Positions 2,159 to 57,576 of a DNA stretch of 64,000 bases are shown one piece after another. How positions within the stretch are numbered: the first letter of the stretch is position 1; the number at the start of each line of letters is the position of its first letter. The notes under the pieces are model-generated. The model saw only the letters and a list, made by a program, of their open reading frames with translations, had not been told where the DNA came from and did not search any database. The DNA is from Dehalococcoidia bacterium (GTDB lineage: Bacteria > Chloroflexota > Dehalococcoidia > SM23-28-2), in contig CP070630.1 of NCBI GenBank assembly GCA_020356025.1, positions 389,024 through 453,023 on the forward strand, in the 5' to 3' direction. Position numbers and translations under genes: made by a program.

Positions 2159-2410
2159 CTCCTCGCCTGAAAACAGCTATTCTCTCACCCAAGACATTAT
2201 GCCTTGCTTGCTATCGAGCGACAAGGACTTTGGCCGGCTCAGCGGCTGATCCACTTGCCTCCTCGCGGGGCTAGATATCCGGCGGCCGTCAATGGGTCGC
2301 GGGGTTTGCCCTATGGTCGTGGATGCCCTTCTGCTGGGCTCGTCCAGACAGAGCCATGCCGGCCAGTCGGGATCAGACCGAGGTCGCGGATCACTGGTTG
2401 GAGGATCTGT

Positions 2411-3982
2411 CTACCCAGAATTGGCACGGGATCCAACAGGTTCGGGGTGGGGGAGGTGCTGGCGCTCGGCTCTCAATGAATCGTCGACTGCCGATGACCA
2501 GCGCCTACGCCCGTTATCTGCGCCGACAGTGCCTCCGGCGACCAGGCAATCGTCCTCGTGCTGCCTTGCACTAGCGCCCATGGCCTCTACAAACGCCTTC
2601 ACCACTCCCTGGTCGAACTGTGTTCCGGCGTTGCGTAGCAGTTCCTCAAGGGCTTGGTCTCGCGATAGTGGGTCCCTGTAGGGACGGCGCGAGGTCATGG
2701 CGTCGTAAGCGTCGATGACGGCGAAGATGCGGGCCGCGAATGGGATTTCGTCGCCAACCAGTCCTCTTGGATAGCCTGCTCCATCGTACCTCTCGTGATG
2801 AGCGACGACGATCTCTGCCGCCTCTTTGAGGAAATCGAACCCTCTCAGCAGTTCGTAGCCCAGCTCTGGGTGGCGGCGTATCTCTTTCCATTCGCTCTCG
2901 TCCAGGCCGGCAGGCTTGGACAGAACGCTGTCGGCCACGCCTATCTTGCCGATGTCGTGCAGGACGGCGGCGTTTGCCAGCTGAGTAAGGCATGGTTCGT
3001 TCAGTTCCAACCATCGACCCATGGCTACGGCCATTCTGGCCACACGCTGCGAGTGCCGGTGGGTGAGCTTATCTCGTATGTCGAGGGCTGCACATAGGAC
3101 GCCAACCACTCCCGAAGCGAACTGTGAACCGTCTCGTCCGAAGAAGCCTCTTGCTATCCCCTTGCGAGCAAGCTTGTTCGCGTACAGGTCGGCGTCTGCC
3201 CAGTGCACCAGTGCCTGCGGATCATCACCGTTCAAGGGGAAGCTCGAGACGCCGATCGACACTCCGAGGTAGATATCGGCGTCGGGTGTCCGGTGGATGG
3301 GGTTGCTGTCGAGTTCCTGCCAGAGGCGACTCGCCAGGGCGCTGGCTCCGCGAGGATCCGTGTTCGGCATGATAATCGCGAACTCGTCGCCACCCAGGCG
3401 GGCGACGGTATCCCTTGGTCTAGCGCACCTGGCCATAAGGTTGGCGAAATCAACTAATGCAGCGTCTCCCAGATGGTGTCCAAACTCATCGTTTATCGCC
3501 TTGAGAGCGTCGACATCGATCATCAGAATGGTCATGGGGTGTTTGGTTTCAGCGGACGTTTGTAGCTCTTCTTGCAGCCGAGCATAGAAGAAGCGTCGGT
3601 TCCCCAACCCGGTGAGGTCGTCGCGGTTGGCGATCTTGTTAAGTTCGGCTTCCCGCTTCGACAGGTCTGTCGCCAGCCTCTGCGCTAATCGACCCAGCGC
3701 TCTTCGGTCCAGGTAAACAAGACCAGAGGCAACGAGAGCGAGACCCAGAAGGAGCAGCCCCTGGGCCACGTATCCAACTGGGGCTTGGAGGGTGAGCTGT
3801 ACGGCAAAGGTCGCAGCGATGGTGCAGAGAAACGCCAGTCCTCCTGCCAGGTGCATCACGGCGAGACGCGCTCCGGCAGTCGCGCCTGCCTGCAAGGGAG
3901 AGCCGCCGTCTTGCCGGCTGGGCAGGGTAGAGCTTGGTGCGACGACTACGTCTTGACGGCTATTGCCCAACTGGTCCTCCAA
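2411..3982 (-). CDS. membrane-bound GGDEF plus HD-GYP cyclic-di-GMP signalling protein
   Basis: A 523-residue protein with both arms of c-di-GMP turnover. Two hydrophobic segments (about residues 41-62 and 68-90) anchor it in the membrane. A diguanylate cyclase domain (about 115-275) follows, with an intact GGDEF at 197-201 and an RxxD inhibitory-site motif at 188-191, five residues upstream. An HD-GYP phosphodiesterase domain (about 290-470) follows, with HDIGK from 342 and HHERYDGAGYP from 395. Both catalytic motifs look complete, so it could make and degrade c-di-GMP. The last 45 residues look non-conserved. No sensor domain is obvious. GC content appears lower than in the neighbours (one counted line is 53%). 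Confidence 0.92.
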   Translation of the reverse strand: MEDQLGNSRQDVVVAPSSTLPSRQDGGSPLQAGATAGARLAVMHLAGGLAFLCTIAATFAVQLTLQAPVGYVAQGLLLLGLALVASGLVYLDRRALGRLAQRLATDLSKREAELNKIANRDDLTGLGNRRFFYARLQEELQTSAETKHPMTILMIDVDALKAINDEFGHHLGDAALVDFANLMARCARPRDTVARLGGDEFAIIMPNTDPRGASALASRLWQELDSNPIHRTPDADIYLGVSIGVSSFPLNGDDPQALVHWADADLYANKLARKGIARGFFGRDGSQFASGVVGVLCAALDIRDKLTHRHSQRVARMAVAMGRWLELNEPCLTQLANAAVLHDIGKIGVADSVLSKPAGLDESEWKEIRRHPELGYELLRGFDFLKEAAEIVVAHHERYDGAGYPRGLVGDEIPFAARIFAVIDAYDAMTSRRPYRDPLSRDQALEELLRNAGTQFDQGVVKAFVEAMGASARQHEDDCLVAGGTVGADNGRRRWSSAVDDSLRAERQHLPHPEPVGSRANSG

Positions 3983-49574: not shown

Positions 49575-49589
49575 TGGAGCAGGCGAAGC

Positions 49590-49735
49590 GAATAGGGTGC
49601 CGAAGTCGCCACAGGCGACACGGGGGAACCAACAGCCTGTGATTAGCAGGCACGGGGTGAATCTCCGACGGTGTCGGAGTAGGCTAGCTCCTTCAAGCCG
49701 AACCCGTCAGCTAACCTCGTAGGCATGCGAAGGAG
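49590..49735 (+). promoter_or_regulatory. c-di-AMP riboswitch (ydaO/yuaA type)
   Basis: The conserved core blocks occur in order: GGGGGAACCA (near 49622), CACGGGGTGAATC (near 49651), GGAGTAGGC (near 49676), CCGAACCCGTCAGCTAACC (49699-49716) and TCGTAGGC. Inner hairpins such as GTCGCCaca/GGCGAC and CAGCCTGT/AGCAGGC fit. This order and the 3' CAGCTAACCTCGTAGGC box are diagnostic for the ydaO class that binds c-di-AMP and usually switches expression off when the ligand is high. It precedes a terminator and the VTT-protein gene. Element ends are approximate. Confidence 0.87.
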
Positions 49736-49747
49736 AGGCTAGCATAG

Positions 49748-55245: not shown

Positions 55246-55638
55246 ATGCACCTGATCATTGATGGCTACGGGGGCGATCCCCGCAGACTGGCTGACCTGG
55301 AACTTGCGCGCGCGCTCTTAGACAGGGTCCCGCTCGAAATAGGGATGGCCAAGATCGCGCCGCCCTATGTCTGCCGCTATGAAGGCGCGAAGCCTGGCGA
55401 TTGGGGCATCTCCGGCTTCGTGCTCATCGCCGAAAGTCACCTCAGCGTCCATACTTTCCCCGACCGTGGCCTGCTTTGGGCCGACATCTTCTCCTGCAAA
55501 TCGTTTGACGCCGATCGGCTAGTGGAGGCAGTGCGAGAGGCCTTTTCCTTGCAGGAGGCGCGGGTTACCCTGCTGGGACGGGGCTTGGAGTACAGCGAGG
55601 AGTTGACCCCGACAGCCACCCGCAGGGCATCTCCCTAG
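55246..55638 (+). CDS. SpeD-family pyruvoyl decarboxylase (AdoMet decarboxylase or arginine decarboxylase)
   Basis: A 130-residue proenzyme of the short bacterial AdoMet-decarboxylase family. The ATG at 55246 follows AAGGGGG. Self-cleavage would occur at Glu63-Ser64 in IAESHLSVHTFP, making the pyruvoyl group; His69 and Cys84 match the processing and proton-donor residues of the family. It begins a three-gene unit with a deoxyhypusine-synthase-like gene (12 bases on) and an agmatinase. No speE is nearby. Members of this family have been shown to have changed into arginine or ornithine decarboxylases, and the context favours that here; AdoMet decarboxylase remains possible. Confidence 0.82.
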   Translation: MHLIIDGYGGDPRRLADLELARALLDRVPLEIGMAKIAPPYVCRYEGAKPGDWGISGFVLIAESHLSVHTFPDRGLLWADIFSCKSFDADRLVEAVREAFSLQEARVTLLGRGLEYSEELTPTATRRASP

Positions 55639-55650
55639 GGAGAGCGCCGG

Positions 55651-56673
55651 GTGCATGATCTGTTCGGCCCTTCCGTGACCCCTTTCCCCGTGGGCGACAA
55701 GGCCAGCGCCGCCGAACTGGTGCGTCGCATGGGCGGTACCGCTTTCCAGGCCCGCAAGCTGGCCCAAGCAGTGCACATCTGGGACGCCATGCTCCAGGGC
55801 GAGGTCACCATCTTCCTGGGCCTGGCAGGGGCTATGGTTCCGGCCGGCATGCGCTCGCTCGTTGCCTATCTCATCGAGAACCGCCTCGTCGACTGCGTGG
55901 TGAGCACGGGCGCCAATCTCTACCATGATCTCTACGAATGCCTGGGCTATCGTCACTGGCAGAGCGGCCAGGAGACCGATGATCTCCGCTTGGCCAAGGA
56001 GCAGGTCTATCGCTTCTACGACGTGCTGGCCAGCGAGCAGGACTTCTCTCAGGGCGAGCGCTTCATCACCGACTTCTCCCTGGCCCTGGACCCGTCGCGC
56101 TCCTACACCACTCGCGAGTACTTTCGTCTTCTGGGGCGGGCGCTCGTGCCGGTGGCCAAGGAGGAGGGGATCCTGACGGCTGCCGTCCGACAGGGCGTTC
56201 CAATCTACTGCCCTGCGCTGGGAGACAGCGTTTTCGGCCTGGCGATAGCGGAAGGTCGTCTGCGCAGCGGCCTTCGTCTCACCTTCGACATCATTGCCGA
56301 CGTAGTGGAGATGGCCCACATCGCCACCCAGGCCAAGACCAGCGGCGTCGTCTACATTGGCGGCGGCACCCCCAAGAACTTCGTCCAGCAGGCGGCGGTT
56401 GCCGCCTATCTCTTCGGTCGTGAGGGGTCGGGCCATAAGTACGGCATCCAGATCACCATGGACGAGCCCGATTGGGGAGGGCTATCAGGCTGCACCTTCG
56501 AGGAGGCCCAATCTTGGTGCAAGATGGCGCCTGACGCCACCTTTGTGACGGTTCGGGCCGAGGCTACCATCGTCCTGCCCGTCATCGTCAGCGCCCTGGC
56601 CGAGGGCAGTGCCCAGACCATCCGCGACCGGCAGCGGCCCGCTATCTCCTTCGAGGGTCTGGCTGAGGCTTAG
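55651..56673 (+). CDS. deoxyhypusine-synthase-like protein (possible homospermidine synthase)
   Basis: 340 residues starting at a GTG with GGGAGAG seven bases upstream. DHS-fold landmarks: GAMVPAGMRSLVAYLIENRLVDCVVSTGAN split by NAD-binding turns, then GVVYIGGGTPKNFVQQ and SGCTFEEAQSWCKM, where the Lys aligns with the catalytic Lys of eukaryotic DHS (WGK). Bacteria have no eIF5A, so deoxyhypusine formation is not expected; related bacterial and plant enzymes make homospermidine from putrescine. It sits between the SpeD-like and SpeB genes with gaps of 12 and 9 bases. Confidence 0.85.
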   Translation: MHDLFGPSVTPFPVGDKASAAELVRRMGGTAFQARKLAQAVHIWDAMLQGEVTIFLGLAGAMVPAGMRSLVAYLIENRLVDCVVSTGANLYHDLYECLGYRHWQSGQETDDLRLAKEQVYRFYDVLASEQDFSQGERFITDFSLALDPSRSYTTREYFRLLGRALVPVAKEEGILTAAVRQGVPIYCPALGDSVFGLAIAEGRLRSGLRLTFDIIADVVEMAHIATQAKTSGVVYIGGGTPKNFVQQAAVAAYLFGREGSGHKYGIQITMDEPDWGGLSGCTFEEAQSWCKMAPDATFVTVRAEATIVLPVIVSALAEGSAQTIRDRQRPAISFEGLAEA

Positions 56674-56682
56674 CGACGGCCG

Positions 56683-57576
56683 ATGGCTCACGAGAGCTTC
56701 TTTCCCCGCACTACCTTCGCTGCCATCCCCGAGGACTACGCTCGCTTCGAGAGCGCCCGCGTGGTGATCCTGCCCGTCCCCTACGAGAGCACCAGCAGCG
56801 GCCGTGCCGGCTGCCGCGAGGCGCCACGAGCGATCATCGAGGCCTCGGAGGAGATGGAGCTGTACGACTTCGACCTGGAGTGCGAGCCCTATCGAGTGGG
56901 CATCCATACGCTGGCGGAGATGATGCCTCACACGGGCGACCCACAGACCATGGTGGAGCGGGTGGAGGGGGTAGTGGGGGAGTTGCTGGACAGCGGCAAG
57001 TTCGTGGTGACCCTGGGAGGCGAGCACATGCTGGCCGTGGGGGCTGTGCGAGCGCACAAGCGGCGGATCGCCAACTTCTCCGTCCTTGCCCTTGACGCCC
57101 ACGCCGACCTGCGGCAGGAGTATCTGGGCACCCCCTACAATCACGCCAGCGTCCTCCGCCGTCTTCTGGACGACGACTGCCTCACGGTGCAGGTGGGGCT
57201 GCGCAGTGCCACTCGTGAGGAGCACGAGCTCGTCCGCGAGCGGAAGCTGCCATTCTTCTCGGTCTCGGCCTATCGTGCTCTGGCGGACGGCCCGCGAGAA
57301 GTTGTCTCCGGCCTGAGCGAGGACGTCTACGTTACCATCGACCTGGACGTCTTCGATCCCTCCCAGATGGCGGCGGTGGGCACCCCCGAGCCGGGCGGCC
57401 TCTTGTGGGACGAGGTGGTCGGTCTGCTGGCGGCTGTGGCCAGTGGAAAGCGAATCGTCGGCTTCGACGTGACGGAGCTGGCCCCCCGCCTGGGGCCTTT
57501 TGCCAACGCTCAGTTGGCGGCCAGGCTGGTCTATCGCGTCATTGGCCTGGCGCTACCTGTCCCCGAAGGGTCCTGA
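56683..57576 (+). CDS. speB: agmatinase (ureohydrolase)
   Basis: A 297-residue ureohydrolase with the two-manganese motifs TLGGEHM, ALDAHADLR and TIDLDVFDPS, and the DVTELAP end typical of agmatinase. It would convert agmatine to putrescine and urea, or act on an N-aminopropyl-agmatine. Last gene of the polyamine cluster. Its 3' end overlaps the convergent dinB-like gene by 38 bases. Confidence 0.9.
   Translation: MAHESFFPRTTFAAIPEDYARFESARVVILPVPYESTSSGRAGCREAPRAIIEASEEMELYDFDLECEPYRVGIHTLAEMMPHTGDPQTMVERVEGVVGELLDSGKFVVTLGGEHMLAVGAVRAHKRRIANFSVLALDAHADLRQEYLGTPYNHASVLRRLLDDDCLTVQVGLRSATREEHELVRERKLPFFSVSAYRALADGPREVVSGLSEDVYVTIDLDVFDPSQMAAVGTPEPGGLLWDEVVGLLAAVASGKRIVGFDVTELAPRLGPFANAQLAARLVYRVIGLALPVPEGS

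What the first reader, a model, noticed from the sequence alone, without database searches (positions are those of the whole stretch)
55246..57576. SpeD-like, DHS-like and SpeB genes as a compact arginine-to-homospermidine pathway
Three tightly spaced genes with their own promoter encode a short pyruvoyl decarboxylase of the SpeD family, a deoxyhypusine-synthase-like protein and an agmatinase. No spermidine synthase (speE) and no other arginine decarboxylase is nearby. AdoMet decarboxylase would make no sense without an aminopropyltransferase, but if the SpeD homologue decarboxylates arginine the three steps connect: arginine to agmatine, agmatine to putrescine, putrescine to homospermidine. 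Change of SpeD homologues into arginine/ornithine decarboxylases is known; the combination seen here looks like a minimal self-contained module. Bacteria lack eIF5A, so the DHS-like protein must have another substrate.
Basis: partly seen in the sequence, partly recalled or inferred. Interest (0 to 1): 0.75.

Follow-up and report, generated by a model that had tools for sequence, protein, structure and literature searches.

The report
Arginine-to-homospermidine gene cluster
Three adjacent genes in an uncultured Dehalococcoidia-like bacterium very probably turn arginine into agmatine, putrescine and then the polyamine homospermidine, using a repurposed SpeD enzyme; this gene set was already described in other microbes in 2023, so here it is a well-supported new example rather than a new kind of system.

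Summary
The three genes are real: SpeD-like (130 aa), deoxyhypusine-synthase-like (340 aa) and agmatinase (297 aa), spaced 12 and 9 bp apart. (1) It lacks the proline that marks true AdoMet decarboxylases and falls, with 100/100 support, apart from the canonical SpeDs. (2) Ten of ten relatives whose only SpeD is the cluster one have no SpeE; the three genomes with SpeE, this one included, each carry a second, canonical SpeD beside it. (3) Around the same DHS-like gene, 14 loci carry the SpeD-like gene, 35 carry an unrelated pyruvoyl arginine decarboxylase (PF01862), none carries both. Corrections: the genome has speD-speE elsewhere, so the module may also supply putrescine for spermidine; no promoter was detected; speDA-speY-speB clusters with tested ADC activity are already published (Li et al. 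2023). Open: the DHS-like enzyme belongs to a third subfamily (PRK00805-like), neither SpeY nor caldomycin synthase by curated cut-offs; whether it couples putrescine (favoured) or agmatine is untested. Side finding: some Chloroflexota fuse a SpeD domain to a DHS domain that lost its catalytic residues.

The parts
55246..55638 (+). speDA candidate: pyruvoyl-dependent arginine decarboxylase derived from the SpeD (AdoMet decarboxylase) family, 130 aa
   Evidence: PF02675 83 bits; below the AdoMetDC equivalog cut-off, 59.6 vs 75.65; S64/H69/C84 kept, Asp52 instead of the AdoMetDC proline; tree split 100/100 from canonical SpeDs
55651..56673 (+). deoxyhypusine-synthase-like homospermidine-forming enzyme, PRK00805-like subfamily, 340 aa, GTG start
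   Evidence: PF01916 301 bits; NF002006 369 vs cut-off 434, SpeY model 236/450, bis(guanidino)azanonane synthase model 243/500; catalytic Lys291 kept
56683..57576 (+). speB, agmatinase (agmatine ureohydrolase), 297 aa; the only arginase-family gene found in the genome
   Evidence: TIGR01230 226 vs 174.3 bits; best solved relative 3pzl agmatine ureohydrolase; single PF00491 hit in genome

Best explanation
The cluster makes homospermidine from arginine. Step 1: the SpeD homologue cleaves itself at Ser64 to form a pyruvoyl group and decarboxylates L-arginine to agmatine (inferred; functional parallels are tested enzymes elsewhere). Step 2: SpeB hydrolyses agmatine to putrescine and urea (inferred from the family). 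Step 3: the DHS-like protein, through an NAD-dependent imine on Lys291, joins two putrescines into sym-homospermidine (inferred; order and substrate not shown). Because the genome also holds a canonical SpeD-SpeE pair and no other recognised ADC or ODC, the first two steps probably also supply putrescine for spermidine.
For: The AdoMetDC-marking proline is present in 30 of 32 canonical SpeDs and 0 of 35 cluster-side SpeDs (marker from PMC10407285). Tree split 100/100. In 13 genomes with the cluster, SpeE occurs only in the 3 that have a second, canonical SpeD next to it; the other 10 have neither. Around PRK00805-like DHS genes, 14 loci have the SpeD-like gene, 35 an unrelated PvlArgDC, none both; with SpeB present 13 vs 24. 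At least 4 switches on the DHS tree. No PF02784, PF01276 or PF01862 decarboxylase in the genome. Purified SpeDA proteins from speDA-speY-speB clusters use arginine only (PMC10407285). DHS-like protein has Ala and Leu where CdmS has Ser67 and Phe204, as SpeY-type proteins lack those two residues too.
Against: No enzyme of this cluster was assayed. The DHS-like protein is above no curated cut-off, so its substrate is not set by family. The genome estimate is 83% complete, so another ADC could be missing from the record.
Confidence: 0.68

Rival explanations
1. Same three enzymes, other order: the DHS-like protein couples two agmatines (or agmatine and putrescine) into a bis-guanidino precursor (caldomycin), and SpeB then removes the guanidino groups to give homospermidine, as CdmS and SpeBap do in Thermus thermophilus.
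For: CdmS is a DHS homologue with exactly this activity (PMC10981699). Glu136, an acidic residue at 143, Leu286, Glu293 and Lys299 positions are kept in the window protein. SpeB is adjacent.
Against: Ser67 and Phe204 of CdmS are Ala and Leu here, while all five CdmS-type proteins examined keep both. The CdmS equivalog model is missed by far, 243 vs 500 bits. SpeDA-SpeB pairs occur in relatives with no DHS beside them, so SpeB probably acts on agmatine. The residue argument rests on a docking model.
Confidence: 0.22
2. The cluster SpeD is a true AdoMet decarboxylase that serves the SpeE encoded elsewhere in the genome.
For: A SpeE is present in the genome and the protein belongs to PF02675.
Against: That SpeE has its own canonical SpeD next to it. 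The cluster SpeD lacks the AdoMetDC proline, scores below the equivalog cut-off, and ten relatives keep it with no SpeE.
Confidence: 0.03
3. The SpeD homologue decarboxylates ornithine (SpeDC) and SpeB serves another purpose.
For: SpeDC enzymes derive from the same family, and a Chloroflexota example (Anaerolinea) is tested (PMC10407285). The diagnostic ODC residues could not be mapped here because the figure is not held.
Against: An agmatinase is adjacent in 13 of 14 such loci, and the exchangeable partner is an arginine decarboxylase family. The published rule is that SpeDC occurs where SpeB/AguAB are missing.
Confidence: 0.05

Closest known systems
speDA-speY-speB homospermidine clusters (Li et al. 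2023, PMC10407285; Marinimicrobia, Solirubrobacter, Capsulimonas, Woesearchaeota, marine Euryarchaeota)
   Same: Same three gene types side by side; SpeD homologue lacking the AdoMetDC proline; no PLP-dependent ADC or ODC found in the genome.
   Different: Here a canonical SpeD-SpeE pair also exists elsewhere in the genome, and the DHS-like protein is PRK00805-like, below every curated cut-off. Activity not tested.
Caldomycin synthase CdmS plus SpeBap of Thermus thermophilus (Kobayashi et al. 2024, PMC10981699)
   Same: DHS homologue with conserved catalytic Lys and an arginase-family hydrolase; end product homospermidine.
   Different: CdmS couples agmatine; the window protein lacks Ser67 and Phe204 of CdmS and scores 243 of 500 bits on the NCBIfam model of that name.
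PvlArgDC - DHS-like - SpeB clusters (PF01862) of Myxococcota/Thermodesulfobacteriota, Zixibacteria, Planctomycetota and others
   Same: Closely related DHS-like gene and SpeB in the same neighbourhood; presumably the same pathway.
   Different: The arginine decarboxylase is of an unrelated pyruvoyl family instead of SpeD-derived.
PRK00805 / NF002006 'deoxyhypusine synthase' of Methanosarcina and other archaea
   Same: Best-scoring NCBIfam model for the window DHS-like protein; archaeal relatives 41-48% identical, often beside PvlArgDC.
   Different: Window protein scores 369, below the 434-bit cut-off. The residues that bind spermidine in human DHS (Asp243, Asp316) are replaced in this whole group, so the name is doubtful.

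Membership tests
SpeDA (SpeD-derived pyruvoyl L-arginine decarboxylase) | SpeD family with self-processing Ser, His and Cys | tested here: met
   PF02675 hit; S64, H69, C84 present
SpeDA (SpeD-derived pyruvoyl L-arginine decarboxylase) | Loss of the proline fully conserved in true AdoMetDC | tested here: met
   Asp52 at that column; proline in 30/32 canonical, 0/35 cluster-side
SpeDA (SpeD-derived pyruvoyl L-arginine decarboxylase) | Occurs without SpeE, or beside a second SpeD that serves SpeE; linked to speB or aguA/aguB | tested here: met
SpeDA (SpeD-derived pyruvoyl L-arginine decarboxylase) | Decarboxylates arginine, not AdoMet, ornithine or lysine | not testable with these tools
   needs an assay
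True AdoMet decarboxylase (SpeD class 1b) | Score above TIGR03330 and conserved proline | tested here: not met
   59.6 vs 75.65 bits; Asp52
SpeDC (ornithine decarboxylase) | Four diagnostic residues Gln, Thr, Phe, Tyr | not tested
   their columns are shown only in a figure that is not held
SpeY (DHS-like homospermidine synthase, NF001980) | Score above curated cut-off | tested here: not met
   236 vs 450 bits; Chloroflexota f38 clusters do meet it
CdmS / bis(guanidino)azanonane synthase (NF002699) | Score above curated cut-off; Ser67 and Phe204 | tested here: not met
   243 vs 500 bits; Ala and Leu at those positions
PRK00805 family (NF002006) | Score above curated cut-off | tested here: not met
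   369 vs 434 bits; best of all models, and in one tree group (SH-aLRT 94) with members that meet it
Deoxyhypusine synthase (true DHS) | Spermidine-binding Asp243 and Asp316 (human numbering) | tested here: not met
   Leu at both positions by alignment; catalytic Lys kept
Agmatinase SpeB | TIGR01230 above cut-off and metal-binding motifs | tested here: met
   226 vs 174.3 bits; DAHAD and DLD motifs in the translation

The most novel reading that the evidence does not exclude
The DHS-like enzyme represents a third bacterial/archaeal homospermidine-forming subfamily (PRK00805-like), separate from SpeY and CdmS, with its own donor/acceptor choice (for example agmatine plus putrescine), so that the arginine route to homospermidine was assembled repeatedly from interchangeable, unrelated pyruvoyl decarboxylases.
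Probability: 0.25. Interest if true: 0.5.

Novelty: new member of a known kind. Interest (0 to 1): 0.33.

Why it matters
It supports, from gene context alone, a published case of an enzyme family changing substrate (AdoMet to arginine): beside the same DHS-like gene two unrelated pyruvoyl decarboxylases replace each other, at least four times on the DHS tree. It also warns that automatic names are unsafe here: the SpeD would be called AdoMet decarboxylase and the DHS-like gene 'deoxyhypusine synthase', and neither fits. The substrate of the large PRK00805-like group, shared by many archaea and bacteria, is an open question that a single assay could settle.

Tried and rejected
Rejected: the SpeD as a true AdoMetDC (genome partner, proline and tree all disagree). 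Rejected: true deoxyhypusine synthase (spermidine-binding Asp residues absent). Structure prediction was not used because it would not settle the substrate.

Full report
WHAT IS THERE. Three + strand genes lie at 55246-55638, 55651-56673 and 56683-57576, separated by 12 and 9 bases. Pfam gives AdoMet_dc, deoxyhypusine synthase and arginase family. The upstream neighbour is cysS; the next genes downstream run the other way. The window is part of a single 2.175 Mb contig, completeness estimate 83%. The nearest named relative is the MAG Dehalococcoidia bacterium SM23_28_2 (L036: SpeD 85%, DHS 88%, SpeB 82% identical). A sigma-70 scan found no promoter.

THE GENOME HAS A SECOND SpeD AND A SpeE. 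PF02675 finds two SpeDs and PF01564 one SpeE. The second SpeD scores 130 bits on the AdoMetDC equivalog model (cut-off 75.65) and lies directly before SpeE, about 288 kb from the cluster. No decarboxylase of families PF02784, PF01276 or PF01862 was found, and the cluster's SpeB is the only arginase-family gene.

THE CLUSTER SpeD DOES NOT LOOK LIKE AN AdoMet DECARBOXYLASE. It scores 59.6 against a 75.65-bit cut-off. The proline reported to separate AdoMetDC from SpeDA (PMC10407285) is present in 30 of 32 canonical SpeDs and in none of 35 cluster-side SpeDs, most of which have Asp. Ser, His and Cys of the active site are kept. In a 67-row tree the canonical SpeDs, including T. maritima, are one side of a 100/100 branch and the window SpeD is on the other (the bootstrap had not fully settled, and rows were first sorted into the two groups by similarity, so the branch support and the genome context are the independent parts of this argument). 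Across 13 genomes with the cluster, three have SpeE and all three have a second, canonical SpeD next to it; ten have only the cluster SpeD and no SpeE, three of these at 95-96% completeness.

EXCHANGE WITH AN UNRELATED ARGININE DECARBOXYLASE. Of 88 loci with a DHS gene of this kind, 14 (the window included) have the SpeD-like gene within 3 kb on the same strand and 35 have a PvlArgDC (PF01862, confirmed by Pfam for representatives); none has both. Of 38 with SpeB beside DHS, 13 have SpeD-like, 24 PvlArgDC and one neither. On the DHS tree at least four switches are needed (a quick tree). PvlArgDC is a family of known arginine decarboxylases, so the shared position is independent evidence for the same reaction. 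In other Chloroflexota, SpeDA-SpeB occurs without DHS beside it and with SpeE in the genome (G019 in one gene row with SpeD-SpeE; G082 and G130 apart from it). The ADC-agmatinase pair therefore seems to be a putrescine source that is joined either to SpeD-SpeE or to the DHS-like enzyme; the window's genome has both.

THE DHS-LIKE ENZYME. Its best NCBIfam hit is PRK00805 (369 of 434 bits); the SpeY model (236 of 450) and the bis(guanidino)azanonane synthase model (243 of 500) are missed by far. A Methanosarcina relative scores 590 on PRK00805. The paper on T. thermophilus CdmS names seven active-site residues; counted back from the catalytic Lys, their positions carried the named residues in a Chloroflexota CdmS-type protein, which supports the numbering. 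There the window protein keeps Glu136, an acidic residue at 143, Leu286, Glu293 and Lys299, but has Ala at Ser67 and Leu at Phe204. The two Asp that bind spermidine in human DHS are both Leu here. This argues against true DHS, mildly against agmatine coupling, and leaves putrescine coupling as the favoured step. The CdmS residue roles come from a docking model, so this is weak evidence.

COMPARISON WITH WHAT IS KNOWN. Li et al. 2023 (PMC10407285) described speDA-speY-speB clusters in several phyla and showed that those SpeD homologues decarboxylate arginine and not ornithine or lysine. Kobayashi et al. 2024 (PMC10981699) showed a DHS homologue that couples agmatine, followed by a ureohydrolase. 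The window is therefore a further example of a described kind, with an unassigned DHS subfamily as its one open element.

WHAT IS SHOWN AND WHAT IS INFERRED. Shown by computation: gene identities, residues, tree split, co-occurrence, exchange. Inferred, with my own estimates: arginine as substrate (about 0.9), homospermidine as final product by either order (about 0.85), putrescine rather than agmatine coupling (about 0.7 to 0.75 given that product).

SIDE FINDINGS. In Chloroflexota families f30, f52 and f55 a SpeD domain without the proline is fused to a DHS domain that has lost the catalytic Lys and the GGG-PKN motif (10 to 18 of 36 residues invariant are kept). These genomes have no second SpeD; a separate DHS gene above the SpeY cut-off was classified in two of them (G084, G032). 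Li et al. describe SpeD-SpeDC fusions; one literature search found no report of a SpeD-DHS fusion, which is not proof of absence. Solved trypanosomatid DHS includes a regulatory subunit (6dft), so an activating or scaffold role for the dead DHS domain is a fair guess. Microcystis phage MaAM05 carries SpeD, a SpeDA-like gene, SpeE and SpeB in a row, a possible complete arginine-to-spermidine route in a phage.

Noticed in passing
L168:2694-4292(-), L169:3486-5084(+), L170:3169-4644(+), L171:2955-4568(-), L181:2108-3550(-): Single genes of 480-535 aa in Chloroflexota families f30, f52, f55 that fuse a SpeD domain (no AdoMetDC proline) to a DHS domain without the catalytic Lys or the GGG-PKN motif. 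Possibly a scaffold or regulator for the separate DHS-like enzyme of the same genomes.
   Followed up: partly
L182:1977-4755 (Microcystis phage MaAM05, MW495066.1): Phage gene row of two SpeDs (one canonical, one SpeDA-like, 41% identical to the window's), SpeE and SpeB: a possible complete arginine-to-spermidine route. The 2023 virosphere survey reports only one phage agmatinase, in another phage.
   Followed up: partly
L172 (G019:C48): SpeD 3295-3636, SpeE 2338-3204, SpeDA-like 1917-2285, SpeB 1051-1902, all - strand: SpeD-SpeE-SpeDA-SpeB in one row with no DHS beside it; several other Chloroflexota have PvlArgDC-SpeD-SpeE-SpeB instead (L151, L158-L160, L162).
   Followed up: partly
L013 (G013:C44): Very divergent SpeD-like gene (long branch, Phe instead of Glu before the processing Ser) next to a PRK00805-type DHS with Ser at the CdmS Ser67 position, SpeE about 1 kb away and SpeB on the other strand; its activity is hard to guess.
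   Followed up: no
L117:3500-5969 (Sphingomonas parapaucimobilis plasmid): A DHS gene above the bis(guanidino)azanonane synthase cut-off stands next to a 'type III PLP-dependent enzyme'. If that neighbour is an ornithine decarboxylase, the NCBIfam name may be too specific.
   Followed up: no
window 49588-49740 (+): c-di-AMP riboswitch (RF00379, 88 bits), unrelated to the cluster.
   Followed up: no
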